Shown here one piece after another: positions 590 through 47,500 of a stretch of 64,000 bases of DNA. Position numbers and translations under genes: made by a program. The stretch comes from Microglena sp. YARC (taxonomy: Eukaryota; Chlorophyta; Chlorophyceae; Chlamydomonadales; Chlamydomonadaceae). Each line of letters opens with the position of its first letter. The stretch's first letter is position 1. The notes under the pieces were generated by a model that saw only the letters and a list, made by a program, of their open reading frames with translations, was not told where the DNA came from and searched no databases. The stretch spans positions 1,226,898-1,290,897 of the forward strand of contig CM039462.1 in assembly GCA_022414725.1 (NCBI GenBank), given 5' to 3'.

Positions 590-1590
590 CGGGCTCAGGG
601 GGATACCCCAAAGCTGCTGCTCGTAGCCTAAAACAAAACAGTGGAAGAGTGGAACTTCCTCATTCCCGTTTACCTAAGTAGCTCCACCTTCTGCCTGTGA
701 GTTGTTTTATTTGTTTTGTTTTTTACAAGGGGGGAACCAGGAAAGGGGGCATCTGAGAAAACCCAGCCCTTCGTGACCAAGGGAAAAAGACAGAGGAAGA
801 CAAGAACAGCTACGGGACAACAATCACAAGGGCGACTAAAGGGACAAAGGAGGACCTTCAGTACCGGCCGCAAGCTGGCATGATAACTCATTTTGCCTCT
901 AAGCTGCTGCTCGTAGCATAAAAACAAACATCTGTAGACCTACCCCATGCCCCCTTACTTTGACCTATCCTATTCCCATCCCCTATCCCCACCTGAGAGA
1001 GACCTTCAGTACCGTCCGCAAGCTGGCATGACAAATCATCTTGCCTCTAAGTTGCTGCTCATAGCATAAATACAAACAATTGTAGACTTCCCACATCTCC
1101 ACTTACTTAGACCTGCCCCATCCCCTACTCCATCCCCACCCGAGATTGACCTTCAGTGCCGGCTGCAAGCTGGCATGACAACTCTGCTCGTAGCGTACAA
1201 ATACACAACTGTAGACATTCCCCCACCCCACTTACTGCAGTCCTACCCCATAGCCACTTAAGTATACCTACCCAATACCCACTTAATTATACCCACCACA
1301 TACCCACTTAATTATACCTACCCCACCCCACTTACTTATCCCATCCCCACCTTCCCCCATCCCCACTTACTGCAGTCCTACCCCATAGCCACTTAATTAT
1401 ACCCACCACATACCCACTTAATCAGACCCACCCCACCCCACTTACTTCCCCCATCCCCACTTACTGCAGTCCTACACCATAGCCACTTAATTATACATAC
1501 CCAATAGCCAATTAATTACCCACCCCATGCCCACCTGAGAGTGGCTTTCAGCACAGGCCGCAAGCAGGCGGGATAGCTCTACTCGTAGCG
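590..1590 (-). repeat. tandem decayed copies of exon j donor end
   Basis: Segments at about 845-925, 985-1065, 1135-1195 and 1530-1580 each repeat the exon j 3' coding end (core cgcaagctggc on the plus strand) with the adjoining cccacctgag donor region; a further fragment is near 600-635. They are separated by CCCCATACCCACTTA-type minisatellite. Confidence 0.7.
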
Positions 1591-1860
1591 TACAAATAAA
1601 AAACTGTAAACCATTCCCACTTACTTAGACATACCCCATACCCACTTCCTTAGACCCACCCATACCCACTTCCTTAGACCCACCCCATACCCAACTCCTT
1701 ATACCCACCCCATACCCACTTACTTAGACCCACCCCAGACCCAACTCCTTAGACCCACCCCATACCCACTTACTTAGACCCACCCCATACCCACTTACTT
1801 AGACCCACCCCATACCCAACTCCTTAGACCCACCCCATACCTACTTACTTAGACCCACCC
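1240..1860. repeat. minisatellite (cttagacccaccccataccca)
   Basis: About twenty imperfect copies of a 22-32 bp unit lie in the intron downstream of exon j. The unit resembles the sequence just past the exon j donor, so it may have grown out of it. Confidence 0.75.
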
Positions 1861-1869
1861 CAAACCCAC

Positions 1870-1983
1870 CTGGGAGTGACCTTCAGCACCAGCCGCAAGC
1901 TGGCGAGATAGATGATCTCGTTCTTGCTGAGTTCGAGACAGCGACATGGATACATCTGCCAACTGATTCACCCGCTCAGTATT
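1870..1983 (-). CDS. exon j: coiled-coil exon, 38 codons (last exon found)
   Basis: Acceptor cttgcag, donor TCCCAG|GTGGGT, phase 0 at both ends. The peptide includes ERVNQLADVSMSLSRTQQER. Four or more partial copies of its 3' end lie between 590 and 1590. Downstream candidates at 293-241 (18 codons, AG acceptor and GTGAGG donor) and at about 690-675 are too weak to list as exons. Confidence 0.7.
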
Positions 1984-3120: not shown

Positions 3121-3159
<39 letters not shown>

Positions 3160-6100
3160 ACACACACACATCATCCCACCACCATAGACAGCTCTACCTG
3201 CCTATCACCTGCCTGCCTCTTCTTGTCTATCACCTTCCTGCTCTTCTCACCTGCTTGCTGTTCTGGACCTGCAGCGTGGTCAAGTTCTCCAAGGCTGCTT
3301 GCAGTTGAGCCTTGGAGGTGTAATCACTCAACTTGGCCGCCGCACAATCGTCATCCTTTGCGATTAGCATCTGGTTGATGGTACAAGGTATTTTATTCAT
3401 GGGGCAGGCAGGGGGAAATCAAATCAACAGACAGGTAGACAGACAGACAGGCTGGTAGATAGACAGACAGACAGGCTGGTAGACAGACAGACAGACAGAC
3501 AGGTAGATAGACAGACAGGCAGGTAGATAGACAGATAGACAGACAGGCAGGTAGACAGTCATACATCAGTGCACACGGGAGCACATTGCAATACGAAAGG
3601 TCAAGAGTAAAAGTGCTTTTGCCCAAAGATTGGTTATTGCCATCACTCAACTTGACCTTGGCACAATCGTCATCCTTTGCGATTAGCATCTGGTTAATGA
3701 TATTTCATGTATTTCATTTATTTCAGTTATAACAGTCATGGGGAAAGCAAATCAATCTGGTTGATGGTATTTGAGTTATTTCAGGTATTTCAGGTATTTC
3801 AGTCATGGGGTAAGCAAATCAATCTGGTTGATGGTAGAAGGTATTTCAGTCACGGGGGAATCAAATCAAGAGACAGGTAGACAGACAGACGGACAGGCAG
3901 GTAGATATGCAGATAGACAGACAGGCTGTATTTGATTTATAAAGTTGGTTTCTGGCTGGCTTTCTAACTGTTTTCTTTGGTTCTGAATCAAGATGTTTAT
4001 TTTTACTGTGCAGCTGGAAAGCAATACAATTATGTAACACCGATCAGATATCCGATAGGTGCATTGGTACAGTCGTATGATAGATCCTGGCAATAACATA
4101 GTCGCATGATAGATCCTGGCAATTTTAACTCGAACTGGGCAGAGCAAAAAAGAGAATTGCACCCCCCTCAGCGCATAAGCTAAACACTGAATAGTGTAGA
4201 GCTTTTCTTTTTTGTTTCAGAAAAGGGGTATTCTGGTAGCGATCAGGGGTTTGGTGGCTTTCAAAGTTGGGCTACTGGTAGCGATTTGGGTAGGTGGCCT
4301 GGGGGTTCGGGAGGCGGGACCGAGATTCGAGTCTCAAGGTAGCAGAAGGTTTGGCCAAAACAGGGTCCCAGGCAGCGATCGCTACTGGTAGAGGAAATAA
4401 AACTCTGGCAGAGCACTGCTGCGGAAGTCATGCAAAACAGCCATTGGGTGATTTTAATCATTATCTGTTCACCAAGTCGTCTATATATCGTTAATTTGCC
4501 AATGCTTTATCAATTTAGCCAGGATTTAGCGTGAGTTTATCAATTTAGCGTTAAGGAATCATCAAAGAGGCCTACCTTCTGAAGCTGAGCCACGGTGCAC
4601 TCCTTGCCAGCCAGCACTTCTTGAAGCCCTGGATCGAAGCAAAGAAAGATGCATCAACGCCTTTTCTTTTTAGCACATCATGTCACTGTTGGGCAAGTCT
4701 CTTTATCCTATTTGGCCTACCCCTGGACTGTAACATACATACATACATACATACATAGAAAGCATACGCTGGTGTGAATCTAGCTCAATGGGCTGAAGGG
4801 GGAAAGAGCTGGGAGTGAGTCATGTCCAGTCTAGCATGGTCTAGTCTAGTATCATTTAGCATAGTATGGTATCGTCTGGTCTGGTGTGGTCTGATGTGGT
4901 CTGGTCTGGTACGGTACAACGCTTGCCATTCGGTGTAGAAAGAAGACTTACGGAAGGTACCCAAGTACGTTTCCATATTTGTATACCGTATGTGTGATTA
5001 TTTCTGCATGTGTTTGCATGTAAGTTTTGTGTTGCGTGTATTTCTGCATGTGTTTGCATGTAAGTTTTGTGTTGCGTGTATTTCTGCATGTGTTTGCATG
5101 TAAGTTTTGTGTTGCATGTATTTCTGCATGTGTTTGCATGTAAGTTTTGTGTTGCGTGTATTTCTGCATGTGTTTGCATGTAAGTTTTGTGTTGCGTGTA
5201 TTTCTGCATGTGTTTGCATGTAAGTTTTGTGTTGCATGTATTTCTGCATGTGTTTGCATGTAAGTTTTGTGTTGCGTGTATTTCTGCATGTGTTTGCATG
5301 TAAGTTTTGTGTTGCGTGTATTTCTGCATGTGTTTGCATGTAAGTTTTGTGTTGCATGTATTTCTGCATGTGTTTGCATGTAAGTTTTGTGTTGCGTGTA
5401 TTTCTGCATGTGTTTGCATGTAAGTTTTGTTTGTATGTATTTCTAAGTGTGTTTGCATGTAAGTTTTGTTTGCATGTATTTCTAAGTGTGTTTGCATGTA
5501 AGTTTTGTTTGCATGTATTTCTGTATGTGTTTGCATGTAAGTTTTGTTTGCATGTATTTCTAAGTGTGTTTGCATGTAAGTTTTGTTTGCATGTGCTTCT
5601 GCATGTGTTTGCATGTAAGTTTTGCATGTATTTCTGCATGTGTTTGCATGTAAGTTTTGTTTGCATGTATTTCGAAGTGTGTTTGCATGTAAGTTTTGTT
5701 TGCATGTATTTCTGTATGTGTTTGCATGTAAGTTTTGCATGTATTTCTGCATGTGTTTGCATGTAAGTTTTGTTTGCATGTATTTCTGCATGTGTTTGCA
5801 TGTAAGTTTTGTTTGCATGTATTTCTGCATGTGTTTGCATGTAAGTTTTGCATGTATTTCTGCATGTGTTTGCATGTAAGTTTTGTGTTGCGTGTATTTC
5901 TGCATGTGTTTGCATGTAAGTTTTGTTTGCATGTATTTCTGCATGTGTTTGCATGTAAGTTTTGTTTGCATGTATTTCTAAGTGTGTTTGCATGTAAGTT
6001 TTGTTTGCATGTATTTCTGCATGTGTTTGCATGTAAGTTTTGTTTGCATGTGTTTCTGCATGTGTTTGCATGTAAGTTTTGTTTGCATGTATTTCTAAGT

Positions 6101-8827
6101 GTGTTTGCATGTAAGTTTTGTTTGCATGTATTTCTGCATGTGTTTGCATGTAAGTTTTGTTTGCATGTATTTATAAGTGTGTTTGCATGTAAGTTTTGTT
6201 TGCATGTATTTCTGCATGTGTTTGCATGTAAGTTTTGTTTGCATGTATTTCTGCATGTGTTTGCATGTAAGTTTTGTTTGCATGTATTTCTGCATGTGTT
6301 TGCATGTAAGTTTTGTTTGTATGTATTTCTAAGTGTGTTTGCATGTAAGTTTTGTGTTGCATGTATTTCTGCATGTGTTTGCATGTAAGTTTTGTTTGCA
6401 TGTATTTCTAAGTGTGTTTATGTGCGTTTGTGTGTGTGTTTGTTAGTGAGTGTTTTTGTGTGTGTGCTCTACAATCTAGGCGGTTAAGGCGAATCCAAAC
6501 AGGCTAAATATAATTACCCCAATATTGACCCCAATATTGGGAAGGGCTGTATACAAAACAAGCACTGGTGAACTGAACCCCAACAAATCGTTAATACCGT
6601 GTGTAGCTATGTGGACACGGTATGTAGCTATGTAGCTATGTGGACATGGTGGGTATGTAGCTATGTAGCTATGTGGACACTGTATATGTGTATCTACACA
6701 GGTTTATCAAATTCCCTGAGCAAATATGTGCGTATGTGTATGCGGTATATATCTGTACATGTTCATGTTTCTGTGCCTTATTGCATATGTGACCGAATAT
6801 GGGGAAGCAGGGCAGGGCATAATTTTGGGTCGCATAGCATGGCAGGGCATAATTTGGGGCGCAGGGTAGGGCAGGGCATAATTTGGGGGCACAGATTATG
6901 GCAGGGCATAAGTTAGGGCGCAGGGCAGGGGATGGGAGGACAGGGCATACTTTGGGGGCGCAGCGCAGGGCAGGGCATAATTTGGGGGAAGCAGGGCAGA
7001 ACATAATCTTGGGGAGTCAGTCACTTGCCAAGATGCTTGACTAGGCAGAGCAGGGCAGGGAGGTGGAGGTAAGGTGGATGATAATCTTGGGGAGTCAGTC
7101 ACTTGACCAACTGATCAAGTATACCGGGCAAAGATGTGGAGGCAGGGCAATGAGGTGGAGACATGGTAGAAGATAATCTTGTGGAGTCACTCAGTTACCC
7201 AACTGGTCAACTAGACAGGGCAGGGAAGTGGAGGCAAGGCAGGGAAATGAGGTGGAGCCAGGGTAGAAGATAATTTTGGGGAGTCACTCAGTTGACCAAA
7301 TGAGCAATTGATCAAATAGACCGGGCAAAGATGTGGAGGCAGGGAAATGAGGTGGAGACAGGGTAGAAGATAATCTTGTGGAGTCACTCAGTTACCCAAC
7401 TGGTCAACTAGGCATGGCAGGGAGGTGGAGGCAAGGCAGGGAAATGAGGTGGAGACGGGGTAGAAGATAATTTTGGGGAGTCACTCAGTTACCCAACTGG
7501 TCAACTAGGCAGGGCAGGGAAGTGGAGGCAAGGCAGGGAAATGAGGTGGAGACAGGGTGAAATAATTTTTGGGAGTCACTCAGTTGACCAAATGAGCAAT
7601 TGATCAAATAGACCGGGCAAAGATGTGGAGGCAGGGAAATGAGGTGGAGACAGGGTAGAAGATAATCTTGTGGAGTCACTCAGTTACCCAACTGGTCAAC
7701 TAGGCAGGGCAGGGAGGTGGAGGAAGGGCAGGGAAATGAGGTGAAGACGGGGTAGGAGATAATTTTGGGGAGTCACTCAGTTACCCAACTGGTCAACTAG
7801 GCAGGGCAGGGAGGTGGAGGCAGGACAGGGAAATGAGGTGGAGACGGGGTAGGAGATAATTTTTGGGAGTTACTCACTTACCCAACTGGTCAACTAGGCA
7901 GGGCAGGGAGGTGGAGTCAAGGCAGGGAAATGAGGCGGAGACAGGGTGGAAGATAATTTTGGGGAGTCACTCAGTTACCCAACTGGTCAACTAGGCAGGG
8001 CAGGGAGGTGGAGGCAAGGCAGGGAAATGAGGTGGAGACAGGGTAGAAGATAATTTTGGGGAGTCACTCAGTTACCCAACTGGTCAACTAGGCAGGGCAG
8101 GGAGGTGGAGGCAAGGCAGGGAAATGAGGTGGAGCCAGGGTAGAAGATAATTTTGGGGAGTCACTCAGTTGACCAAACGAGCAATTGATTAACTAGGCAG
8201 GGCAACGATATGGAGGCAGGGCAATGAGGTGGAGCCAGGGTAGAAGATAATCTATTGGAGTAAGTCAGTTGCCCAACTGGTCAAATGGCAGGGCAGGGAG
8301 GTGGAGACAAGTAAGAACATAACCTTGGGAAGTCAGACAGTTTCCCAGGTGCTCAACTAGGCAGGGCAGGGAGTTGGATGCAGGGCAGGGGGGTGGAGAC
8401 AAGGTATAAGATAATCTTGGGGAGTCAGTCAGTTGCCCAGCTGCTCAACTAGGCAGGGCAGGGCAGGACAGGACAGGAAGGTGGAGACAGGGTAGAGGAT
8501 AATCTTGGGGAGCCAGGCAGTTGACCCCCTGCATGGTTCACTTCCTGGTTGGTAAGCTTGTGAAGTAGACTTGAGCAAGGCTTGGTCTGGTGATGGTCCT
8601 TTGACCGAAATGCGTCACTGCTGACTTAAAAAGCGTTGCTTCCGTAAAAAACGAAACACGCCACCACTTCGTAAAAAACGAAATACGTCACCACGTTGGT
8701 AAAACCGAAACACGTCACCACTTGCGTAAAAAGGTTTCATTTCTCTCATATGTCCCAATCTTTGATTAAGAAAGAGTGCCCATGATATGCCCATGATATG
8801 CGTGTGTGTGTGGTGGTGGTGGTGGTG

Positions 8828-8858: not shown

Positions 8859-11800
8859 GGGGGTCAGGATGGCTATTGCTTTAGGGCACAAGGTGTGTGT
8901 GTGCACTCCCACCAGTTTCCCACCTGCGTAGTTCACTTCCTGGTTGGTGAGCTTGTGTTGTAGACTTGAGCAGTGCCTGTGCTTGTCCACAAGCTTCTCC
9001 TCCAACATGGCGGCCCTAGCTAGCGCGCTGTCCCGAGCTGCAGTGGCCTGCGAGCAGAGAGGTTGGCAGGTAGGTATGTGGGAGGGTTGGTGGGTGGGTA
9101 GGTAGGCAGGTGTGTGGGTGGTTATGTATGTATGTGGGTATGGATGTGTGTGGGTATGTATGTATGTGTGTGGGCATGTATGTATGTGTGTGGGCATGTA
9201 TGTGGTTGGGCATGTGTGTGGATAGGTGTGTGGGTGGGTATGTATGTTGGCGGGTAGGTATGTAGGTGAGTAGGTATGTTGATGGGTTGGAAGTAGCTAG
9301 AGGGCAGACCATGCTGATCAACTATTACAGAATAATATAATGCGGATTATTAAGGAAATCCTAAAACCATGTTCTTTCAAACAAGGCTCTTCCCTCACTA
9401 TAGCCATTGTTTGTGTAGCAGCATCTGACGTCGAACAAAAAAAAGCATTTGATTATATTTGATCATGTAATCGTAGAGTATGAAGAAAAATGACAAAATA
9501 TAGCCTAAACTTATACCTAACATTGCTATACCCTCTTTACAGCCATTGTTTGTGATGCAGCGTCTGATTCTGAAAAAAAATCGTCTTATCATATAATAGT
9601 AGAATATGAAGAACATTTGACAAAATATTACCTAATCTTATACCAAACACGGCTATACCCTCAATACAGCCATTGCTTGTGATGCAGCATCTGATATTGA
9701 ACAGAAAAAAAGCATTTGATAATCTAATCCCGATCTTACAGTGGAATATAAAGAAAATTGACAAAACATGACTTATACTTATACATAACTTGTGATGCAG
9801 CATTTGATGTTGAACAGAAGCAAAGCATGTGATCCGCATTTGATCTTCTAATAGTAGAATATGAAGAAACATGACAAAATCTTGTACCAACCACGGCTGT
9901 ACCTTCCCCACAGCCATAACTTGTTATGCAGCATCTGATGTTGAACAGAAGCAAAGCATGTGATCCGCATTTGATCTTCTTATAGTAGAATGCGAAGAAG
10001 AAATACGACCTAATCTTATATTTAACACGGCTGTACTTCCTCTACAGCCATTGCTTTTGATGCAGCATCTGCTGCCGAACAGAAGAAAAGGGTTTGATAG
10101 TATAATCGTAGAATACGAGGAAAACATTATCAAAATATGATCTAATCTGATACAGATCTTGTGATGCAGCATCTGATATTGAACCGACAAAAAGCATTTG
10201 ATCATCTAAAAGTAGAATATGAAGAAAAAATAATCAAAATATGGCCTAATCTGATACAGATCTTGTGACGCAGCATCTGATGTTGAACAGAAGCAAAGCA
10301 TGTGATCCGCATTTGATAATCTTATAGTAGGATATGAAGAAAATCGTTTGACAAATATTTCCAAACAATAATTAAATCAAATTGTTTCATGTTTCCCCCC
10401 CAAAAGGCTTTACCTTCTCTACAGCCATCGCTTGTGATGCAGCATCTGATGTTGCACAGAAGAAAAGCATGTGATCTGCATTTGATCATCTTATGGTAGG
10501 ATATGGAGAAAATCGTACACTAAATATTTTCAAACGAGAATTAAATGGAATTGTGATGAGATACATGTTTTTTTCCAAAAAGGTCTACCTTATCTATAGC
10601 CATCGCTTGTGCCACAGCCTCCAATGTCGTTCCCTGCAGAGCAGCCTCACAGTCAGCCAACCGAATGCGGTACGAATGCACCTACAGCACAAAAGGGCAG
10701 GACGGAATTACTATCATCATCTTAATAATAATAACAACCAGAGGATGTTGTTTTGTGTAGAGCTGTCTCGCAGTGAGCCAATTGACCGCGGTACGAATGC
10801 ACCTACAGCACAAAAGGGCAGGAGGAAGTTACGATAATCATCATCATGATAATAATAATAACAAGAGGACGTCGTTTCGTGCAGAGCTGTCTCGCAGTGA
10901 GCCAATTGACCGCGGTACGAATGTACCCACAGCACAAAAAGGCAGAACGGAGTTATGGTCAGAATAATAATAAGAAGAATAAGAGGGAGAGAATGTCGTT
11001 CCCTGAAGAACAGCCTCACAGTCAGCCAACCGACTACGGAACGAATGTACCTTAACCACAATAAGGTAGGACAGAGTTATGGGCGTAAGTGGCCATGTAG
11101 GCATCACTCAATCGCATATCAGTATGTGTGACTTAGTACTCAGGAGTGCTGTGTGAAAGTGTGAAAACTAGGGTTGTCAATATTGTCCTGGTTCCAAGAT
11201 TATCATGCGACATAATGATACATACATTTCTTTGTAGCCCTTCCTGTCGCAGTTGGGTTGAGTCCCTTTAGCCTATTTGGCCTACCCCTGGACTGTAACA
11301 TACATACATGCATGCATATAAACGGTATATATCCACATTATCCTGCTTGACAAACCCTTCTCAATACTGGCCATGTGTATTTCGACCACAGAAGGTGAGC
11401 AGCCTGATAGCTGGCAGACCATTCAACATATCTTAACTACGCAGTCAACATCGGCATGACTTGTCACAAACCCTCCGGCAACAAACACCCTCTGCCACAG
11501 CACACCTGCAGTCTGTCACCACCAACCCACCCTTCTACCTGTTCACATACGCACCTCAGCTTCGAGCGTAGCTATCAAAGTGTTTGCTGCTCCGAGTTGT
11601 TCCTCAGAGTACAAGCGTGCCTCTCGCTCCATCTCAGCGCCTCCCTATCGCAGGTTTTGGATGGTGATGGTGATGATGGTGATGATGGTGATGATGGTGA
11701 TGATGGTGATGATGGTGATGATGGTGATGATACTGATGACAGCGTCGTCGATGCTGATGGTGATGACGGTGATGATGGTGATAGTGCTGATGATAGTGGT

Positions 11801-14800
11801 GATGCTGATGGTAGTGATGTTGCTGGTGATGGTGATGATGATGATGCTGGTGGTGATGATGCTGGTGATGCTGGTGATGATGCTGGTGATGATGATAGTG
11901 GTGAAAGTGATGCTGGTGATGATGTTGCTGGTGATGGTAGTGGTCATGATGCTGGTGCTGGTGATGATGATGATGATGATGACGGTGATGGTAGTAGTGA
12001 TGATTATGATCATGGTAATGATGCTGGTGCTGGTGATGACGGTGCTTGTGATAATGAAAGTGGTGATGATGCTGGTGGTGATGATGCTGGTGGTGGTGAT
12101 GATGATGCTGGTAATGACAGTGGTGATGATAATGATAGTAGTGATGATGATGATGCTGGTGGTGATGGTGCTGATGATGGTGGTGCTGATGATGAACTGT
12201 TCAAACTGCATAGTGCCCATCTGATCTCACGACAACCCCTAAAGCCTACTCACATCTTGATGCTGCATGGATCGTTCTAACTGCATGGTGCTGATCTAGT
12301 CTCATTACAACCACTAAAGCCTACTCACATCTTGTTGCTGCATTGATCGTTCAAACTGCATGGTACTGATCTGGTCTCGCAATTGCTCAGCTGCCCCTTC
12401 GGCCTCAGTAGCCCTCCTCTCAGCTACGGCCAACTTTTCAGAGTCAGCACGTTGCCTCTCAGCTACGGCCAATTTCTCAGCATTAGAAGCTCTCCTCTCA
12501 GCTATGGCCAACTGTTCAACATCAGCAGCCCTCTTCTCAGCTATGGCCAACTTTGCCCTCAACATCTCAATCTGCGTTTCCATCCTCCGTGCAGAAGATG
12601 AAGAGGCACTACCGCCAGAGGGGTCCGACAGCCTGGCAGTGTGATTATTGTCAACGGCACTTGCTGCGGGAGTAGCTGCTGACTCAATGGCGGACGTGGC
12701 ACCTGTGCATGGGATACAATAGTACATGAGGATTTGATTGTTCGAATAATCACACACAGACGGCAAAAGTCACACAAAACCACACACACTAGCCCAATGC
12801 TACGTCGTTGCTGACAATGCTGATGAAAATGTTTCTGCTGACAATTCTGATGAGTCTGCTTCTTCTGACAATGCTAATGACAATGCTGATGAGTCTGTTT
12901 CTGGTGACAATGCAGATGAGTCTGTTTCTGGTGACAATGCTGATGGCAATGCTGATGACAATCCTGATGACCATGTGAACGGCGATGACGGCGACAAATA
13001 AGATGACAATGATGAGGATGACAATGATGAGGATGACAGAACAAACGGACAGGAGTTCAAGGGCCTTACATTTGAAGGAGCTCACTAGCATCATGGCTTC
13101 TCCCTCAAAGTTGATGTTAATGGTTTAGGGCCTTCCCTTTGAAGGAGCTCAACAACCTCGTGGCTTCTTCATCAAAGTTGATGTTTAGGGTTCAGGGTTT
13201 AGGGCCTTACTTATGAAGGAGCTAATCAGCCTCATGCCATGATGGCTCCTTCCTTACAGTTGATGTGAATGTCTTAGGGCCTTCCCTTTGAAGGAACTCA
13301 CCAGCCGTATGGCATAAGCCATGATGGCTTCTTCCTCAAAGTTGATGTTAATGGTTTAGGGCCTTCCCTTTGAAGGAGCTCAACAGTCCCGTGGCTTATC
13401 CCTCAAAGGTCATGTTAATGGTTTAGGGCCTTTAGGGTGTAGGGTTTAGGGGCTTGCTTTTGAAGGAGCTCATCAGCCTCATGGCATGAGCCATGATGGC
13501 TTCTTCCCCAAAGTTGATGTTAATGGTTTAGGGCCTTCCCTTTGAAGAAGCTCAACAGCCTCGTGGCTTCTTCCTCAAAGTTCTCAAAGTTGATGTTTAG
13601 GGTTTAGGGCCTTACCTTTGAAGGAGCTCATTAGCCTCATGGCTTCTTCCTCGAAGTTGATGTTTAGGGTTTAGGGTTCTGGGCCTTACTTTTGAAGGAG
13701 CTCAACAGCCTCGTGGCTTCTTCCTCAAATTTTGTGTTCAGGGTTTAGGGTTTAGGGCCTTACCTTTGAAGGAGCTCATAAGCCTCATGGCTTCTTCCTC
13801 AAAGTTGATGCTGTCGGCATTCCACTCATCCCTAAAGTTCAGAGTGAGAGCAGACTCCCCAGGACCATGCTGGGGGGTACACAGTGGAGAACCAAAAAGC
13901 AAAGCTCCACCAGTAAGGGTAGGTGATGAAGACAAAGGAGCAGTATAAGTTCCACCACCGGCAACGGGGCGTGATGCAGGCATAGTACATGTAGCAGCAC
14001 TAGCAGCGGCAAGGGCAGGCGATGTATAGGTAGCGTAAGCAGCAGCATGAGCACAGGTAGCAGTACCCGCAGTTGTAGCAGCAGCAGTTGCAGCAGCACG
14101 GGGTTTGGCAGGTGAGGTAGTGGTGGCATGAGCAGCACCGCTAGCAACCGCAGCTGATGCAGGAGCAAGAGGCGGTGTTGTAGGAGGCCCTGTACGTCTA
14201 CAAGCTTGAGCTCCTGTCTTCCTTTCTACACTGCTTGCGAGCTTTGCTGCTCTGCCGCTGCTGCTGGCGGCGGTGGGGAGGGGAGCAGGAGGTACACCAG
14301 GATGCTGGTCGGAAGGCAGCGGAGCAGTCTTTGCAGACTTCATGGAGTCATTAGCGCTAGCCGGCTTGCGTTGAGCTGGCGCGTCCTTGGCACTGTTGCA
14401 GCGGATTAAGGGTGTGGCAGAATCGACGGGGGGCACTGCATCAGGTGATGAGTTCTTAGACCTGGCCAGCTTGCGCTGAGAAGGCGCTTCCTTTGCACTG
14501 TTGCAGCGGATTAAGGGTTGGGCAGCACCGACGGGAGGCACTGCATCAGGTGACGAGTTCTTAGAAGCCCTAGAGCTTCCCCAGGGTCCTGCTCCAGGTC
14601 TGGCAGATACGGAGCCACCCTTGGAGGCGGAGCCCGGCGAGCTTTGGGAGCGATGAGAGGCACCATGAGGAGCCTTGGGAGCGACGAGAGGAACCAAGGC
14701 GGATTCTGGCCCCTGGGAGCGATGAGAGATGGGTCCTGCTGCAGCTGAGCTCTGGGGTGGAGTTCCCCAGGTCCCGTTCCGGGTGCGCGAGGACTGGGAA

Positions 14801-37510: not shown

Positions 37511-38571
37511 TGAAACACATGCATATGTTCTTGTCGTCAATGCTCTGTGCATACATGTTATGTGAAGTACAATGCTCTGCATGAACTTGGGCAGCCATTT
37601 GAGGAGACTAACCAGACCAACGCGTTTGATTGGACCTGAAGGGCACAACCTAGTTCCTTGGCAGATCATTCACTCATTTCAATCATATTTCTTTGGTGGC
37701 CTCAGAGTCATCGGCTGCCGCAAGCTTGCTGCAGACAAACCAGCCGTTCACTCGAGGGCGGGTGTCTGCACAGCGTTTCCGGTTCTCGTAACGCAGGGTG
37801 TGCATGTGTGTCAGTGTCTGCAGTTGGAGAAGGGTTTTAGTTAGGGTTCAGTTAGAGTTCAGTTAGATTTCAGTTTCTGCAGTAAGAGATTGACAGTAAG
37901 GGTTAACTTACAGTTCAGTTTATGCATTTATATAGGGGCAGCTTCTGCAGTTTCTGCAGTCAGAGAGGGACAGTGGGCAAAATATGAGAGGCTGGAAAAT
38001 ATTGAAAAGTGTTTGAAGGGGAGCTCATCTTTTCCAGCACCTCTTTTTGAAGCGCTACCCCAGCACTAAACATGGTTGGTGCGGAGGACGCCTTTCAATA
38101 TTTAGTAAAAATCTTGCTTTCTCCAGGCAGTAATACATGAGCACCTGATGAACATATCCATATAATACTAATATACATCGGGTTTGATAAGTTTACGATC
38201 AACAACTTCAGTTTTCAATTTAGCTTATGTCTTCCTAGCATTAATTAATAACAAGATGTAAGAAGTAATAGAGACTAAGACCAGTATATATAAATATATG
38301 CGATCGAAATGAGCTCATCACGCACAAGAACCAAAACTAGGGATGTAAAGTACGATATCGTATGACTAAGATAATCGTACACAGTAAAATATTGATATTC
38401 ATTGGTAACCAGGCCCACAGGAGTCAAACTAGCACCACTGGAGCAGTGATTTTTTTTCAAACGTGAAAGTGGGTTTCTTCTAGCTTTATGGTTTAAGGGC
38501 TCTTCCAGGGACAGCACTTTAGTGCTTTTTATGGATTTTAAACGCTTTTTGTAGCTTTTCAAGTGCATTTT

Positions 38572-38593
38572 AGGGGGGGGGGGGGGGGGGGGT

Positions 38594-38627
<34 letters not shown>
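38572..38627. repeat. interrupted poly-G tract, about 56 bp
   Basis: G-run broken by one T and one A. Length is probably not reliable. Confidence 0.85.
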
Positions 38628-38628
<1 letters not shown>

Positions 38629-38756
38629 GGGAAACCTTTTTTTTATAACTTTTTTATAGCGATAATTTCGATAAAAAGGGGTCAAAACTAGCGATCGCTA
38701 TATATAGCGGTACAAAGAATCCCTGGAGTCAAGGGGGTAGATGGTCCACAACTAAC

Positions 38757-41326
38757 CTTCTTTTTCTCCTTCCACCTTGCCATGGCATCAGCTCGCAGTT
38801 TACGTTTGAGTTCTTGGCTGCCTTCAGCAGCCTTACTCCAGTTCCCCAAGGGAGATGCCTGTATTGTCATGGCTTGATCACTGTGCTCCTGGTTGTACTG
38901 AGAAGACATCACCCCGATCCCAGGGATGTAATCAATTTGCTTCTGGTTGAGCTCAGAGGGCATCGCCCCGCCCCCAGGGAGGTGTGCGCCTCCACTAGCT
39001 GCGGGGGAGCTTGTGCCCCCCTGAGCAACCTGTTGATGCCAGCTAGGCGCACTCAACCTGGGTCCTTGGCCTAGACCCTGGAGTTGCTGCTGGATGAGAA
39101 GCTCCTGGGTAGCCAGAGCCCTGGCTGCAGCGGCCTGCTGCTGCTGTTGCTGGTAATGAAGAGCCACGTCAGCCATCTGCATGGCCAGCATCTGTTGTTG
39201 CTGCTGCAACTGCGCGGAGTAAGCATGCATGGCGTTGAGGAGCAGTTGCGGAGCTAGGGGTGGAACGCCCTGCATGGCGTTGAGTGGGTGTGGTGGCGCT
39301 AGCTGCAGCATGCCTTGCATGGTATTGAGTGGCAGTAGTGGTGGCACGCCCTGCATGGCATTGAGCGGCAGTGGTGGCGCTAGCTGTGGCATGCCCTGCA
39401 TGGCATTGAGCGGCAGTGGTGGCGTTAGCTGCGGCAAGCCCTGCATGGAATTGAGGTGCAGTGGCGGCGCCAACTGCGGCATGCCCTGCATGGCATTGAG
39501 TGCAAGTGGTGGCGCTAGCTGCGGATTGCCCTGCATGGCATTGAGTGCAAGTGGTGGCGCTAGCTGCGGCATGCCCTGCATGGCATTGAGTGCAAGTGGT
39601 GGCGCTAGCTGCGGCATGCCCTGCATGGCATTGAGTGCAAGTGGTGGCGCTAGCTGCGGCATGCCCTGCATGGCATTGAGCGCAAGTGGCGGCGCCAACT
39701 GGGGCATGCCCTGCATGGCATTGAGTGGCAGTGGCGGTGCTAGCTGCGGCATTCCCTGCATGGTATTGAGATGCAGTGACGGCACCAACTGCGGCATGCC
39801 CTGCATGGAATTGAGTGGCAATGGCGGTGCTAGCTGCGGCACACCAAGAGGATGCATTTGAGAGCCCGACATCAGATTCTGGTTCATGAGCCACAGGGGA
39901 GGTTGAGCAGACGACGTTGTGGGCTGTGGCGCTAGTGGGAAGGCGGGCGGCGGATGCACGGGCGCAGTATGATGCGAGGGGGCAGGGGAAGGGCTGGGAG
40001 ATTCCATGTTGGACATGCTCTCTAGCTGCACAGCTGCAGGTAGTGACTGCATGTTATGGTGGGAACCGGGGGTAGAACCAAAGCTCGAACTGTGGGTAGG
40101 ACCCAAGCTTGAGCCTTTGGTGGCATGGCCCAAGCCGTGGGTAGGCCCCAAGCTTGAGCCGAGGGTGGCATGGCCCGAGCCGTGGGTAGGACCCAAGCCC
40201 TCAGCAGGTTGATCCGCCCCAGGGCCACTCGATTGAGCCCCTGCGCCGGAGGGACGTTTAAACAGCCCTGCACCTGAAGTCTGATGGCAGGTCCCTTGCG
40301 CAGTGGTCCCAATGGCTGACCCCTTGGCACCAGAGTTCCCCTGGCTGACCCCCTCCCTCAGCTTCACTGCCCCTTCATTGGGGGGGTCCATGGACTTTGC
40401 AGATGGTAGCGCAGCAATGGCAACGGTTTTGATTGGGCTGGCCATAGGCCACACCTTGGTTACGCTGTTCATAGGCTGCACATTGCTTTGGCTGTTCATA
40501 ACCTGCACCTTGGTTTGGCTGTTCATAGGCTGCACCTTGGTTTGGCTGTTCATAGGCTGCACCTTGATAACCCCCATCTCCAGAAGGGACTTGATGTGGG
40601 GTGGTGATGGACCGTTGCTGTTCACAAGCTGCACCTTGTTTTGGTTGTTCATAGGCTGCACCTTGGTTACCCCCATCTCCAGAGAGGACTTGATGTGGGG
40701 TGGTGATGGACCCTGCTGCTCCTCGCTCTGCTCATGGTGTCTCTTGTTGCTGTTCACAAGCTGCACCTTGGTTTGGCTGTGCATAGGCTGTACATTGGTA
40801 ACCCCCATCTCCAGAAGGGACTTGATGTGGGGTGGTGATGGGCCCTGCTGCTCCTCACTCTGCTCACCGTGTCTGTTGTTGCTGTTCGTAGGCTGTACAT
40901 TGGTAACCCCCATCTCCAGAAGGGACTTGATGTGGGGTGGTGATGGGCCCTGCTGCTCCTCACTCTGCTCACCGTGTCTGTTGTTGCTGTTCGTAGGCTG
41001 TACATTGGTAACCCCCATCTCCAGAAGGGATTTGATGTGGGGTGGTGATGGACCCTGCTGCTCCTTGCTCTGCTCATAGTGTCTCTTGTTGCTAATCTTG
41101 GACGTCAGCTCTTCAGGCCTGCTGCCCTGAGAAGGTACTGGCTTGGACTGGCTGCTGGGACGATCAGCCTCATAGGCGGCGTCTTCAAAGGGCGCCTCAA
41201 CAGACTTCCTCGCTGAGTTGACGCCGGGTGCCTGGACAGACTTGCTCAACTTGACACCGAGCCTACTGAAGTAGCGCTTGTGAAAGGCTGCATGTGTGGC
41301 GTATGGACGCAATGCATGAACAGTGC
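38757..41326 (-). CDS. PRR exon 8 (repeat-rich linker and CCT start)
   Basis: 856 codons after acceptor ttacctgacag, ending AAGAAG|GTTAGT in phase 0. In order: a basic start (HKRYFSRLGVKLSKSVQ); five copies of a ~35-residue unit around EEQQGPSPPHIKSLLEMGV (about 41090-40560); short VQPMNSQTK repeats; a Gly/Ser/Pro-rich part; about twelve copies of a 17-residue unit around LNAMQGMPQLAPPL (39850-39230); a Gln-rich helix (39220-39060); and the CCT-like end ELKRKLRADAMARWKEKKK. The repeats are codon-phased and the frame is intact, so the exon is under coding constraint. If the intron after 38757 is retained, the frame continues 22 codons to a stop. Confidence 0.8.
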
Positions 41327-41522
41327 CTGTCAGGTAATTTTTTGGGGGGGGGGCGGAGGTTGGGTTATGTGGTGGTGAAAGATGTGTGCGTGTGTGTGTG
41401 TGTGGGGGGGCTTGGCAGGGGAAGGTCGGATTATGTGGTGGTGAAAGATGTGTGTGTGTGTGTGTGTGGGGGGGGGGGGGGGCTTGGCAGGGGAAGGTCG
41501 GATTATGTGTGTGGTGAAAGAT

Positions 41523-41553
<31 letters not shown>

Positions 41554-44500
41554 GGGCTTGGCAGGGGAAGGTCGGATTATGTGGTGGCAAAAGATGTGTG
41601 TGTGTGTGTGTGTGCAGGAGGATCTGCAACTTCATCTTCCAGGTAGGATGGCGGCATTCTTAATTACATCATGTAACAATTTCAGTTCGCGTGAAGTCAG
41701 ACTGGACATGTAGCATGATGGTACGTATTCAGCATGGATGATAAGTAGTACAGCATCCTAGCTTCAAGTGATGGTGATAAGTAATATGTGATTAGTAATA
41801 AGTGATAAGTAATAAGTAATAAGTGATAAGTAATTAGTAATAAGTGATCAGGAATAAGTGATAAGTACGTAATAAGTAATAAGTGGTAAGTATGAGGAGC
41901 AGTCCAGACAATTCACTCATGCATTCGAATTGCCAGCTACATGACCAGGTGGGCCCTATGCAAGCAATCAAAATTTGTAGAGACTGTTCTGCAAGCAGAT
42001 TCATTACATTACCCTTATATTGTCTCAGACAGGCTATTGTCAGTTTTTTTTGCAACCCGTCGACAAATCGGTGACCCAGGTGCGACCACCGTGCGACCCT
42101 CAGGTGTGCGAGTTTAGAGCGAAATCGGCCCTTGGTCGCCACAAATGCGAAAAAAAGGCACTGCCTATAGTTGACCCAAAACAGGCCAGCTCCATAACAC
42201 CCGGGGGGTTCTCCCAAGCACCACCAGAATCACAGTGAACAAGCAATTTGTAGTAACTGTTCTGCCCAGTGACCCAGTCCTTATGAACTCGCTCTTGTCT
42301 TGGCTGGCATTGACGGGATTCCCAGCTACAAGTTCAGGTTCAGGTTTAGCTACAGGTGGGCCCCATGCAGGCACTCAAGATTGGTAGTAACCTTGCCGTC
42401 AAGCAGCAGGCACACTTGGAGTCCAGTACGGCACCAATAAAAATGTAATAATCATGATGATGATGATGATGATCATCATCATAAGAATTCACTCTTGTCT
42501 TGGCTTGTCGCTGTAGGGGTGAGACATATCCTCATGTGTGTGTGTGTGGAGGGGTGTCTAGGCTGTTGCTCTCTGCAAGACGCATCCTCAAGTCGAGCCA
42601 AGTGACAAGAGCTATGTCTAGTGAGGACGGGCAAGTACGTACATGAGCACATGCCATCTTCATCAGAACTCACTCTTGCCTAGGCTGCTGCTGTTTTGGC
42701 CAGACACATCCTCAAGTGGAGCCATGTGACAAGAGCTCTGTCTAGAGAGGAGGGGCAAGTACGTACATGAGCACATGCCATCTTCACCAGAACTCACTCT
42801 TGCCTAGGCTGCTGCTGTTTTGGCCAGACACATCATCAAGTGGAAGAATGTGACAACTAGCTCTGTCTAGTGAGGACGGGCAAGTACGTACATGAGCACA
42901 TGCCATCTTCGTCAGAACTCACTCTTGCCTAGGCTGCTGCTGTTTTGGCCAGACACATCCTCAAGTGGAAGAATGTGACAAGAGCTCTGTCTAGAGAGGA
43001 GGGGCAAGTACGTACATGAGCACATGCCATCTTCACCAGAACTCACTCTTGCCTAGGCTGCTGCTGTTTTGGCCAGACACATCATCAAGTGGAAGAATGT
43101 GACAACTAGCTCTGTCTAGAGAGGAGGGGCAAGTACGTACATGAGCACATGCCATCTTCATCAGAACTCACTCTTGCCTAGGCTGCTGCTGTTTTGGCCA
43201 GACACATCCTCAAGTGGAAGAATGTGACAAGAGCTCTGTCTAGAGAGGAGGGGCAAGTACGTACATGAGCACATGCCATCTTCACCAGAACTCACTCTTG
43301 CCTAGGCTGCTGCTGTTTTGGCCAGACACACCCTCAAGTGGAAGAATGTGACAACTGGCTCTGTCTAGAGAGGAGGGGCAAGTACGTACATGAGCACATG
43401 CCATCTTCATCAGAACTCACTCTTGCCTAGGCTGCTGCTGTTTTGGCCAGACACATCCTCAAGAGGAAGAATGTGACAAGAGCTCTGTCTAGAGAGGAGG
43501 GGCAAGTACGTACATGAGCACATGCCATCTTCATCAGAACTCACTCTTGCCTAGGCTGCTGCTGCTGTGGCCAGACACATCCTCAAGTGGAGCCATGTGA
43601 CAAGAGCTCTGTCTAGAGCGGAGGGGCAAGTTCGTACATGAGCACATGCCATCTTCATCAGAACTCACTCTTGCCTAGGCTGCTGCTGCTGTGGCCAGAC
43701 ACATCCTCAAGTGGAGCCATGTGACAAGAGCTCTGTCTAGTGAGGAGGGGCAAGTACATACATGGGTACATGCCATCTTCATCAGAACTCACTCTTTTCT
43801 TGGCTGGTGATGACGTGATGAGCTGCATCCTCAAGTGGGAGCATGTGACTAGAGCTCTATCTAGTGAGAAGGGGCAAGTACATAAACGGGTACATGCCAT
43901 CTTCATGTGAACTCACTCTTGTCTTCGCTGGCACAGACGGGTCCAGATGCATCCTGTGCAGCTCGGGGGGGAGTTTCATTGGACTGGCAGCCGACTTGGG
44001 TGGCCACGCTTTCACTGGTGGTTTTGTTTTCAGCGGATCCTCTCACACCCCGCTCTCGAGTTCGAAGAGGCAAGCTGCACAGAAGAGTGGAGCGGGGGTT
44101 GGGGTGAGTGGGGTGGGGGTTGGGGGAAGGTGGGGGTTGGGTTGGGTTGGGTTGGGTTCAGGTGGCATGGAGTGTGGGATGACTGCGGTTGGGGTGGGGT
44201 AAGGTGGGGAAGGGGGGGGATCCAAAGAGGCGAGCTGCACAGAAGACATGCACCAAAGGACAGCTTAGTGCTTACTTTGCATAGTCTTAGGAAGGCCAGT
44301 GATGACCCAAGAAAGGGATAGCTTCGTGCCAACTGGTGAACAGTGTCACATAACGTAGTGTGACCAAGTTTGATTGGCACTAGCAGCATTGGCACAACTT
44401 AGAATGACTGGCCTGGACTGATGAAGTCAAATTGGTAGTACTGGACTGAATTGGCTTGGCCTGGATTGAACTGAGTTGGATTGGCTTTATAAGCAGCATT

Positions 44501-47500
44501 GGCACAACATTTGTATTCAGATTTATTTTATTTTATTAAGATTATAATATTTGAGTTTACTAAGAGAGGACAGCCAGAACTTGGACTCCCACCCACCCAC
44601 CCACCCACCACCACCATCACCACACACACACATGCGTACCCCCTCCAGAGAATGACCAAGTTGGCAAGTTTTTTGGAAAAACATGATGACTGGACTGGAC
44701 TGATTAAGTCAAATTGGTAGGACTGGACTGAATTGGCTTGGACTGGATTGAATCGAGTCGGATTGGCTTGGCTTGGACTGATTGAGTCAACTTGATAGGA
44801 CTGGAATGATATGGCTTCAATGGGCACGAGACGCTGAGACCAACCTTCAACACAGGTGAACCCAAGGGACAAGTCCTATGCAGCATCGCAAGCGACGCGG
44901 AAAATTGGCGGAGTGTGTTGGCAACGGAACGAAAGGTGGCAACGATGGAGCTTACTGAAGCGAGTTAGTTACGCGACCGTTGGCTAACTTCAGGCTTCAA
45001 TTTTTTTGTCGGACGGACAAATGGGTAAACATGGGGGCTCCCGTCCCCTTGAAGAGGGGGCTCTGCCAAAAATAGGGGAATATAATTGTAGCACAAGCTT
45101 ATGAGTAATCCCTGAAGTGAAACCTTAGCTTCATATTAGTCAATTTTATAAGATTTGTGTGCCATCCTTTTTGAGAGAGTCTTCTACAGGCAGGGGCATT
45201 GGTGCCTCAAAAACTTAAACAACAAAATATTGGGCCATTTCATCAACAAAAGAACATGCACCAAGGTACTACATTTTGACAAATTGGTCAGCGCTTCAAA
45301 CGCACAAACGTCAAATTGGCCAGCGCTTTTTAGTGCTAAAAGCGCAAAAACTGCGCGATGCGCCCACAGGGGGTTGAAAAATGTGCGAAACGCACAGTGG
45401 GGCTCAAAAAGCGTGCGCAAAATCGCGCTGCTTTTTTTTTTGTTGCGCGCGCTTTGTAGCACCCTGAAATGCACCAATGCCCCTGCCTGTGAAAGACTTT
45501 CTTGCAAATCTAGTTAACGTTGCCTTTTAAATAAGACGCCTTTGCCTTTTAAAAATAAGTCTTAAAATACTCATTTTATCAGGCAAAGGCAAAACAAAGC
45601 TTTAAATAGCTTATGATACGCTCGAGGCAAACGCCCTCGCCCATCATCATATTATTAGTAGTATTAGCATTTAGTGACCCACCTGTTCTCTCGGATTCCA
45701 CTCTCATCATTGCCGTCCTTGCAACCAGGCTCTACAGACTGGCCGGAACCACCGCATCCGAAGTTGTCTCGTGTGTCATTTCCTGAGCCGTCCTCTTTGG
45801 AGCGATCTCCAGAGCTGCCAACATTGCCTCGCACGTCATCTTCCGAGCTGCCGTCCTTGGGTGCAGCGTCCCTGGATGGGACAGGGATGGCCGGATGGTG
45901 TGATTACACGGTGGTGGTAGTGGTGGTGTGGCAGTACGTATGGTGATGGTGGTGGTGGTGGTGGTGTGATTATGCCTACATTGCCTCCCACGTCATCTTC
46001 CGAGCTGCCGTCCTTGGGTGCAGCGTCCCTGATTGGGGGAGGGATGGCCGGATGGTGTGATTATACGGTGGTGGTAGTGGTGGTGTGGCAGTATGTATGG
46101 TGGTGGTGGTGGCGGTGGTGTGGCAGTATGTGTGAGTATACCTACACCGCCTCGCACGTCATCTTCGGGTATGGGATGGCCAGATGGTGTGATGATAAGG
46201 TGGTGGTAGTGGTGGTGTGGAAGTATGTATGGTGGTGGTGGTGGCGGTGGCGGTGGTGTGGCAGTATGTGTGAGTATACCTACACCGCCTTGCACGTCAT
46301 CTTCTGATCTGCCATCCTTGGGCGCGAGTGGGGGAGGGATGGCTGGATGGTTTGACTATACGGTGGTGGTTGTGGTGGTGTGGCAGTATGTGTGAGTATG
46401 CCTACACTGCCTCGCACGTCATCTTCTGAGCTGCCGTCCTTGCGTGCAGCATCCCTGAGTGGAAGGGAGGTTGATGGATGGTGTGAGTATGTGGTAGTGG
46501 TGGTGTGGCAGTATGTATGGTGATGGTGGTGGTGTGGCAATATGTATGGAGGTGGTGGTAGTGTGGCAGTACGTGTGATTATGCCTACATTGCCTTGCAC
46601 ATCATCTTACGAGCTGCCATCTTTGGGTGCAGTATCCCTGCGAGGGAGAGGGATGGGCAGATGGTGTGAGTACGTGGTAGTGGCAGTGGTGGCGTGGCAG
46701 TATATGTTAGTATGCATACATCGCATCACATGTCATCTTCTGAGCTGCCGTCCTTGGGTGCAGTGGCCCTAAGAGGGAGAGGGATGGATGGTGTGAGTAC
46801 GTGGTGGCGGTAGTGGTGGAGTGGCAGTATGTATGGTGGTGGCTAAGCAGGCTGGTAGCCTACCCCCCCACCCCGCCCCACACACACAGGGAATATGTGG
46901 ACTGGCTAGAAAGAGAGGGATGGATCAATCGAGTTAATATATATACAGTCCGACCAGCAGGCAGTGGCATGGCATGCATAGGGTGGGAGGATGCTTCGCT
47001 GACCAAGACCCCTCCTTGAATTCTTTGCAAGCATGTGGACAGGCTGGCAAGAGAGGATGGAGTGAATATATGGCTGTGTGTGTGAGGGAGAACACTAGGA
47101 CAACACTAGCACCACCACAACCACCACCAGCACAACACCAGCACCACAACCACCACACCAGCACCAGCACCAGCACCACAACCACCACCACCACCACACC
47201 AGCACCACAACCACCACCACCACCACACCAGCACCACAACCACCACCACACCACCACCACCACCACACCAGCACCACACCAGCACCACAACCACCACCAC
47301 AACACCAGCACCAACAACACCAGCGCCACCACCAATAACAACAATGCTGTATTTACCAGGCGCCCTCCTGTTTTCCGCAGCTTGTCCCATCAGCACCCAC
47401 TGATTTGACAGTGGTGCTCTTATCTTGGCTAGCTGCGTTCTCGGCACCTTCCTGCTTGTGGGCATCTAACTGACAGAGGCTGAAACCGCGCTGCAGGGAG

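What the first reader, a model, noticed from the sequence alone, without database searches (positions are those of the whole stretch)
590..46772. Systemic tandem copying of exon edges into neighbouring introns
In two unrelated genes on the minus strand, at least eight exons have short segments straddling the exon/intron boundary (about 30-60 coding bases plus the splice site and some intron) repeated next to the real boundary. Donor-side copies lie downstream, acceptor-side copies lie upstream, as if duplication radiates outward from each exon. Copy number ranges from one to about twelve; many copies keep usable GT or AG sites. Ordinary minisatellite growth would not be expected to start at splice junctions again and again. 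Possible sources are microhomology at splice motifs, R-loop or co-transcriptional damage at junctions, or repair using partly spliced RNA; these are inference.
Basis: partly seen in the sequence, partly recalled or inferred. Interest (0 to 1): 0.93.

Follow-up and report, generated by a model that had tools for sequence, protein, structure and literature searches.

The report
Exon edges tandemly copied into introns
In the two genes read and in several others sampled from this alga-like genome, stretches of DNA straddling exon ends have been duplicated into the neighbouring introns, leaving extra splice sites there; this looks like frequent duplication of pieces about 150 bases long, seen where genes can tolerate it, more than a process aimed at splice sites.

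Summary
With phase-checked models of both genes, 12 of 28 junctions have a copy nearby. In dynein heavy-chain genes of the same genome, a family chosen before looking, 22 of 50 junctions have a copy in their own intron. Controls over 94 junctions: inverted copies 0, shuffled introns 0 of 282, other introns 1 of 282. A chaperonin gene gave only 1 of 7. Copies keep GT in 48 of 56 and AG in 22 of 27 cases. Nearest copies lie a median 157 bp away, against about 54 bp for the unlinked repeats of the same introns. Short-unit arrays touch exon edges as often as geometry predicts; 80-260-bp arrays do so 39 of 60 times against 41% expected. With exon letters left out, unselected genes show little enrichment (21 of 46 against 36%). 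'Radiating outward' is largely automatic, since selection keeps the exon. Best reading: pervasive nucleosome-scale tandem duplication filtered by selection. A preference for edges remains possible: similarity to the edge falls with distance in 12 of 15 arrays. Species unnamed; no RNA data.

The parts
16297..22180 (-). gene 1 exon e2 (1961-codon open frame; upstream start not settled)
   Evidence: 25 of 27 (overlapping) TRF rows inside it have periods divisible by 3
16085..16114 (-). short copy of the e2 donor edge (31 nt, 90%)
14974..15132 (-). copy of the e3 acceptor edge, upstream
13764..14927 (-). gene 1 exon e3
   Evidence: phase continuity
13060..13763 (-). array of 9 copies of the e3 donor edge, spacing 67-90 bp
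12329..12702 (-). gene 1 exon e4
12204..12277 (-). copy of the e4 donor edge (74 nt, 86%)
11555..11644 (-). gene 1 exon e5 (no edge copies found)
10745..11082 (-). 3 copies of the e6 acceptor edge, spacing 121-124 bp
10589..10681 (-). gene 1 exon e6
9368..10452 (-). array derived from the e6 donor edge (about 69% alike overall)
8924..9047 (-). gene 1 exon e7
8518..8577 (-). isolated copy of the e7 donor edge, 395 bp away
4576..4628 (-). gene 1 exon e8 (no edge copies found)
3642..3702 (-). isolated copy of the e9 acceptor edge, 319 bp upstream
3251..3370 (-). gene 1 exon e9
1870..1983 (-). gene 1 exon e10
935..1576 (-). 3 detected copies of the e10 donor edge (71-78%)
51046..51176 (-). gene 2 exon a: end of a response-regulator receiver domain
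47357..47490 (-). gene 2 exon b (no edge copies found)
45973..46842 (-). array of 5 detected copies of the exon c acceptor edge
45683..45871 (-). gene 2 exon c
44225..44246 (-). weak copy (22 nt) of the exon d acceptor edge
43917..44074 (-). gene 2 exon d
42555..43831 (-). 124-bp array with 11 copies of the exon d donor edge
38757..41326 (-). gene 2 exon e (long, repeat-rich coding exon)
37683..37817 (-). gene 2 exon f: CCT motif and stop

Best explanation
The nuclear genome of this alga-like eukaryote suffers frequent direct tandem duplications of about 80-260 bp (typically 120-210), distinct from the 20-79-bp minisatellites that also fill it. SHOWN: edge copies are direct, local and in over half of cases plainly head-to-tail, carry the unspliced exon|intron joint, mostly keep their splice dinucleotides, have spacings unconstrained modulo 3, and occur at about 44% of junctions in the unselected dynein introns and in the window. 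INFERRED: duplications lying wholly inside exons are mostly purged or survive only in frame; those touching an intron are tolerated, because splicing goes on at the copy next to the exon body and the others become intron. A unit of that size in an intron a few hundred bases long often takes in a junction, so exon edges accumulate copies without any attraction to splice sites. Repeated events at the edge, plus array expansion inside the intron, lengthen the intron. INFERRED mechanism: fill-in and end joining at breaks made by two nicks on opposite strands, the nick distance perhaps set by nucleosome spacing.
For: Size classes: edge-linked repeats median offset 167 bp (dynein) and 124 bp (window), unlinked intron repeats 54 and 53.5 bp; exonic 40-nt edges in dynein genes: 23 of 48 with a copy, none nearer than 120 bp, against a median of 80 bp for 1025 repeat-positive points of 2520 in 18 evenly spaced stretches. 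Nearest offsets of 45 edges: 35 lie within 120-260, median 157 (counted by hand). Match length at least 0.85 of the offset in 19 of 34 (counted by hand). 0 of 94 inverted, 1 of 282 in other introns. Geometry: short units 2 of 25 edge-linked against 7%, long units 39 of 60 against 41%. Bias-free test: dynein edges 21 of 46 against 36%. Selection: in coding exon e2, 25 of 27 TRF rows have periods divisible by 3 (rows overlap), while edge-copy spacings are 24/35/25 for remainders 0/1/2. Break-repair precedent for small tandem duplications: PMC8355091 (passages).
Against: Long-unit arrays touch edges 1.6 times (dynein) to 2 times (window: 6 of 12 against 25%) more often than geometry predicts (the 33 dynein introns include 9 from genes picked for their copies), and window edges exceed interiors in the bias-free test (13 of 26 against 20%). 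Similarity to the exon edge falls with distance in 12 of 15 arrays, as repeated copying from the edge would give. Points at 120-220 bp are a smaller share in the spaced stretches (159 of 1025) than in dynein introns, so the long class may be gene-associated. The 120-210-bp size is sharp in the first dynein set but wider in the window (74 to 395 bp; exonic edges 8 of 26, two of them at 60-80 bp) and in the further introns (85 to 878 bp). One chaperonin gene showed only 1 of 7. In 15 of 34 nearest copies the match fills less than 0.85 of the offset, so they are decayed or not strictly head-to-tail. The nick-pair mechanism and the nucleosome link were not tested at all.
Confidence: 0.57

Rival explanations
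1. Exon edges are a true hotspot: duplication of about one nucleosome length is initiated again and again at exon-intron boundaries (positioned nucleosomes, R-loops or co-transcriptional breaks), so copies are laid down outward from each exon.
For: Gradient of similarity in 12 of 15 arrays (6 of the 8 with three or more copies); long-unit arrays edge-linked in 39 of 60 cases against 41%; variable spacing within one array (124-195 bp at the L032 donor) suggests separate events; window edges 13 of 26 against 20%.
Against: Unselected dynein edges are not clearly above intron interiors when exon conservation is removed (21 of 46 against 36%; 17 of 46 against 32%); in 6 of the 15 arrays the copies are on average more like each other than like the exon, i.e. 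later growth inside the intron.
Confidence: 0.24
2. Ordinary minisatellite growth (short-unit slippage and unequal exchange) that happens to run over junctions.
For: The genome is rich in tandem arrays: in 18 evenly spaced 10-kb stretches the share in arrays of period >=20 runs from 4% to 100%; short-unit arrays touch edges at the geometric rate.
Against: Edge-linked repeats have offsets two to three times longer than the unlinked intron repeats, and single unexpanded duplications are common among edges.
Confidence: 0.1
3. Copies are templated by partly spliced RNA or cDNA (retro-copying into introns).
For: Two intronic copies read as joined exon n and n+1 (L029 4355-4408, L032 2922-2992).
Against: These are 2 of 47 introns, against 44 of 94 junctions with copies of the unspliced exon|intron joint; copies lie near their source and only 1 of 282 tests hit another intron. 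Both joints can also arise by fusion of a donor-edge with an acceptor-edge copy or as remnants of intron gain.
Confidence: 0.04
4. Copied splice sites are functional: used as alternative donors and acceptors, or kept as decoys.
For: GT kept in 48 of 56 and AG in 22 of 27 copies, at or slightly above control dinucleotides (70-81%).
Against: Spacing remainders modulo 3 are 24/35/25, so extended exons would mostly shift frame. No RNA evidence either way.
Confidence: 0.04
5. Introner elements: mobile introns that insert copies of themselves.
For: Introners occur in green algae (PMC9860276, passages) and could explain rapid intron change.
Against: Introners give similar introns in many genes; here the copied unit is the gene's own exon edge and other sampled introns were hit in 1 of 282 tests.
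Confidence: 0.01
6. Assembly or base-calling artefact.
For: Arrays are hard to assemble, and no reads were available.
Against: Copies differ from the exon by about 2-33%; positive loci lie on four contigs besides the window (C1, C2, C3, C5).
Confidence: 0.01

Closest known systems
Intron gain and change by tandem genomic duplication (potato RdRp case, PMC4974935, abstract read; Drosophila cases, PMC2891723, passages read)
   Same: A duplication that crosses or touches an intron-exon boundary supplies extra splice signals; surplus sequence ends up as intron.
   Different: Described there as single or few cases and as a route to a new intron. Here nearly half of sampled dynein and window junctions are affected, arrays reach 11 copies, and the usual result seems to be a longer existing intron. 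Only 4 of 47 introns show an exon-end = intron-end repeat.
Small tandem duplications from break repair (CST/Pol alpha-primase fill-in at breaks made by paired nicks, PMC8355091, passages read; plant paired-nick work is recalled, not read)
   Same: Direct, head-to-tail duplications made where a break with overhangs is filled in and rejoined.
   Different: That paper speaks of short (<100 bp) insertions; here 120-260 bp dominates and events recur at one place. The enzymes were not examined here.
Minisatellites and intronic tandem repeats
   Same: Head-to-tail arrays in introns, later expansion inside the array.
   Different: Unit length mostly 80-260 bp instead of 20-79 bp at edges, and the array includes coding sequence and a splice site.
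Introners
   Same: Rapid intron evolution in algae; reported link of insertion to nucleosome linkers (PMC9860276, passages).
   Different: No dispersed family seen: the repeated unit is private to each junction in the sample.

Membership tests
Tandem genomic duplication at intron-exon boundaries | Direct duplicate next to its source, crossing the boundary | tested here: met
   44 of 94 junctions (window, 25 unselected and 9 picked dynein introns); match length at least 0.85 of the offset in 19 of 34 (counted by hand)
Tandem genomic duplication at intron-exon boundaries | Produces a new intron | tested here: inconclusive
   4 of 47 introns have exon-end = intron-end runs of 6-10 nt against 0.22 expected; no outgroup genome to show the gain
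Small tandem duplication by break repair | Head-to-tail, orientation direct only | tested here: met
   0 of 94 inverted
Small tandem duplication by break repair | Depends on end joining and fill-in polymerases | not testable with these tools
   needs mutants or mutation accumulation
Ordinary minisatellite | Same unit-length spectrum as other arrays of the genome | tested here: not met
   medians 167 against 54 bp (dynein) and 124 against 53.5 bp (window); spaced points 80 bp
Introner elements | Similar intron sequences in many genes | tested here: not met
   other sampled introns hit in 1 of 282 tests; the whole genome was not searched for each unit
RNA-templated copies | Exon-exon joints in the copies | tested here: not met
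   2 of 47 introns, both with other explanations
Splice-site-targeted process | Junctions duplicated more often than intron interiors | tested here: inconclusive
   dynein 21 of 46 against 36%; window 13 of 26 against 20%; long-unit families 39 of 60 against 41%

The most novel reading that the evidence does not exclude
Exon edges in this lineage are real hotspots of a one-nucleosome-long tandem duplication: nicks in the linkers that flank exon-positioned nucleosomes are filled in and rejoined, so each exon repeatedly sheds copies of its own edge outward. This grows introns, occasionally makes new ones (exon-end = intron-end repeats in 4 of 47), and calls for a spliceosome that can choose the exon-adjacent site among near-identical copies.
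Probability: 0.25. Interest if true: 0.85.

Novelty: new variant of a known kind. Interest (0 to 1): 0.62.

Why it matters
If nearly half of the junctions in many genes carry duplicated splice sites, this genome is a natural experiment in two open questions: how introns grow and arise, with tandem duplication seen at many stages, and how the spliceosome tells the right site from near-identical copies. Acceptor copies are the harder case, because they lie upstream, where a scanning model would meet them first. The unit length close to one nucleosome repeat suggests a testable link between chromatin and duplication.

Tried and rejected
BLAST of the whole window against itself missed close tandem copies such as the e4 donor; replaced by masked edge queries. 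Raw comparison of junctions with intron points (12 of 28 against 258 of 530; 22 of 50 against 552 of 909) shows no excess at junctions but is misleading, because each array is counted once per copy; collapsed by copy number, then repeated without exon letters (introns under 250 bp left out, 23 of 25 dynein introns used). Cymbomonas tetramitiformis was considered as the species and dropped: its long-read assembly is far larger (627.3 Mb is 68.3% of it; passages of PMC10675990) than the 568 Mb here. Species not identified. Introners, RNA templating, functional decoys and artefact were considered and rated low (see rivals).

Rows dropped or joined by hand: dynein locus L037 left out (broken gene, frame and stops), L039 and L040 have no intron in the stretch; micro-exon splits in L030 (4788-5255) and L031 (350-2427) merged into single introns; L034 1055-1124 (69 bp) is doubtful but kept; the L032 intron 1439-3081 is probably misplaced, because my aligner allows GT donors only and the site looks like GC-AG. 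The further 18 junctions come from four genes chosen because they had many exons and copies, and ambiguous introns at their far ends were left out; they are not an unselected sample. One search uses both sets together (33 dynein introns of 150 bp or more); its class above 260 bp (6 of 23 and 3 of 7 edge-linked) is not used in the argument. In the other-intron control the drawn introns could come from the neighbouring stretch of the same dynein gene.

Literature: searches listed no report of genome-wide exon-edge copying; only the ranked listings were seen (25 of 68, 1 of 1, 0, 15 of 78, 15 of 25, 12 of 34, 4 of 4 papers), apart from the papers cited. One search was a search on Cymbomonas.
Full report
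WHAT IS THERE. The window is C1:1226898-1290897 of a 568-Mb assembly in 2390 contigs. Two minus-strand genes cover most of the finding. Gene 1 has exons e2 to e10 (22180 to 1870), gene 2 exons a to f (51176 to 37683). The reading phase is continuous over all 13 introns (a few boundaries were then moved by 1 nt after reading the edges). Gene 2 ends a receiver domain in exon a (Response_reg, E 5e-4, below the family cut-off) and carries a CCT motif in exon f (E 5e-7, above cut-off); that this combination marks a plant-type pseudo-response regulator is recalled, not tested. Gene 1 exon e2 and most of e4 gave no Pfam match at E 0.01.

CHECK OF THE OBSERVATION. Each junction (50 nt each side) was searched against its 3-kb surroundings with itself masked. 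12 of 28 junctions had a copy spanning at least 10 nt on both sides: donors e2, e3, e4, e6, e7, e10, d and acceptors e3, e6, e9, c, d. Copy numbers run from 1 to 11. The d acceptor match is only 22 nt. Over 94 junctions in window and dynein genes, 44 had a direct copy in their own intron, 0 an inverted one; dinucleotide-shuffled introns gave 0 of 282 and other sampled introns 1 of 282.

IS IT GENOME-WIDE? I chose dynein heavy chains (Pfam AAA_6) before seeing any result. The exon-by-exon hits already show it at protein level: on C1 near 61.043 Mb a full exon (profile 1-110) is followed by seven copies of 41-46 codons from its end and preceded by a copy of its first 46. I fetched stretches at all 14 places that the 66 matches fall into and aligned them with a spliced aligner of my own to a single-exon paralogue. 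In 25 introns of 11 genes, 22 of 50 junctions have copies in their own intron, 11 of 25 donors and 11 of 25 acceptors; 8 of the 11 genes have at least one. Nine further introns of four genes that I picked because they had many exons and copies gave 11 of 18, which is not an unselected figure. Outside dyneins I could reach only one chaperonin gene, 4.3 kb: 1 of 7 junctions, offset 175 bp. An HSP70 control did not complete.

IS IT AIMED AT SPLICE JUNCTIONS? The genome is rich in tandem arrays: 18 evenly spaced 10-kb stretches have 4-100% of their bases in arrays with period 20 or more. Junctions must therefore be compared with intron interiors. Counted point by point, interiors are in repeats as often as or more often than junctions (258 of 530 in the window; 552 of 909 in dyneins), but long arrays dominate that count. 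Collapsed to one copy per family, 17% of window intron points and 26% of dynein intron points are duplicated, against 43% and 44% of junctions. But junctions are easier to detect, because exons are conserved. Using only the 50 intronic nt beside the junction, dynein edges are duplicated in 21 of 46 cases against 36% inside (17 of 46 against 32% at a stricter cut); window edges in 13 of 26 against 20% (10 of 26 against 17%). So in the unselected genes the excess is small, and it is larger only in the window that was picked for the pattern.

TWO CLASSES OF REPEAT. The copies at edges have their own length. Exonic 40-nt edges of dynein genes with a copy in the intron (23 of 48) have the nearest one 120-300 bp away, median 165, none nearer; in the window 8 of 26, two of them at 60-80 bp; 1025 repeat-positive points of 2520 in the spaced stretches have a median of 80 and a mode of 20-60. 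Intron windows connected to an exon edge have median offset 167 bp (dynein, 328 of 1005 windows) and 124 bp (window, 222 of 1105); unconnected repeats 54 and 53.5 bp. Nearest offsets of 45 edges have a median of 157 and 35 lie between 120 and 260 (counted by hand); exceptions run from 74 to 878. In 19 of 34 the match fills at least 0.85 of the offset (counted by hand), so just over half are plain head-to-tail duplications; the rest are decayed or separated from the edge.

GEOMETRY. An intron of a few hundred bases (collapsed median 440 bp in dyneins, 880 in the window) has limited room for a 160-bp duplication that does not include one of its edges. Counting families, short units (20-79 bp) are edge-linked in 2 of 25 (dynein) and 2 of 26 (window), against 7% and 4% expected; long units (80-260 bp) in 39 of 60 and 6 of 12, against 41% and 25% (dynein introns of both sets). 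Short units show no attraction to edges. Long units show a 1.6- to 2-fold excess, which decay of purely intronic copies, overestimated ancestral intron lengths and exon conservation could produce, but a mild preference cannot be excluded.

SELECTION AND DIRECTION. Whichever copy of a duplicated edge is used for splicing, the others lie on the intron side, so the outward direction needs no explanation. Inside the coding exon e2, 25 of 27 TRF rows (they overlap) have periods divisible by 3, as expected if exonic duplications survive only in frame; edge-copy spacings are 24/35/25 for remainders 0/1/2. One result goes beyond this: in 12 of 15 multi-copy arrays similarity to the exon edge falls with distance, in 2 it rises, in 1 it is flat (sign test by hand, two-sided about 0.013). 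Seven of the 15 have only two copies; of the eight with three or more, six fall. That fits repeated duplication at the edge with the youngest copy nearest. In 6 of the 15 the copies are on average more like one another than like the exon, which fits later growth inside the intron.

SPLICE SITES. Donor copies keep GT in 48 of 56, acceptor copies AG in 22 of 27; other dinucleotides in the same alignments are kept in 70-81%. The copied sites are not being removed faster than their surroundings. How the exon-adjacent site is chosen, especially at acceptors where copies lie upstream, is open and needs RNA.

RNA TEMPLATES AND NEW INTRONS. Probes of joined exon ends matched inside 2 of 47 introns (L029 4355-4408; L032 2922-2992; a third hit, in the window, was only an acceptor-edge match and is absent). 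Both may be fusions or remnants of intron gain rather than cDNA. In 4 of 47 introns the exon end repeats at the intron end for 6-10 nt, against 0.22 expected from mismatched pairs (p 7e-5). This is a mark that gain through tandem duplication or break repair would leave, but no outgroup was available.

COMPARISON. Boundary-crossing tandem duplication is known from a potato RdRp gene (PMC4974935, abstract) and exon duplication as a source of introns from a few Drosophila genes (PMC2891723, passages). Small tandem duplications can be made by fill-in at breaks from paired nicks (PMC8355091, passages). Introners (PMC9860276, passages) do not fit, since copies are private to each junction in the sample. 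What differs here is scale, unit length and repetition. The nucleosome idea rests only on the length and on recalled facts about nucleosome repeat length.

VERDICT. Real, local, widespread in the sampled dyneins, and probably the visible trace of a nucleosome-scale tandem-duplication process filtered by selection, not of a process that seeks splice sites. The unexplained remainder is a mild excess at edges, the distance gradient and the characteristic length.

Noticed in passing
L032 around 1426-1446 (C5 dynein locus): The donor at this intron position looks like a GC-AG site (GGCTACGCAG|gcaagtct), whose copies run through the intron.
   Followed up: partly
L029 4355-4408 and L032 2922-2992: Intronic copies that read as joined exon n and exon n+1.
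   Followed up: partly
L029 3713, L032 441, L036 1084, and intron 4950-7642 of the joined stretch L032+L047: Exon end and intron end share 6-10 identical nt, 4 of 47 introns against 0.22 expected.
   Followed up: partly
window 13060-13763: The e3 donor array contains runs of CCCTAAA, the plant-type telomere motif (name recalled), inside an intron.
   Followed up: no
joined stretch L029+L044, acceptor at 9691: Eight copies about 155 bp apart, but the nearest lies 878 bp from the junction.
   Followed up: no
window 25285-28326 (+): Armadillo-repeat open frame followed by a second open frame whose end looks like a RING finger (by eye); the six best protein hits are 53-60% identical, unnamed EukProt proteins.
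   Followed up: partly
L037 (C6 dynein locus): A dynein AAA_6 gene with stops and frame breaks, apparently a pseudogene.
   Followed up: no
L009 3983-4507 (-), next to the window: AN1 zinc-finger gene (zf-AN1, E 3.5e-22) with repeat-rich sequence beside it.
   Followed up: no
window 3122-3159, 38573-38631: Long pure or nearly pure G or C runs in introns.
   Followed up: no
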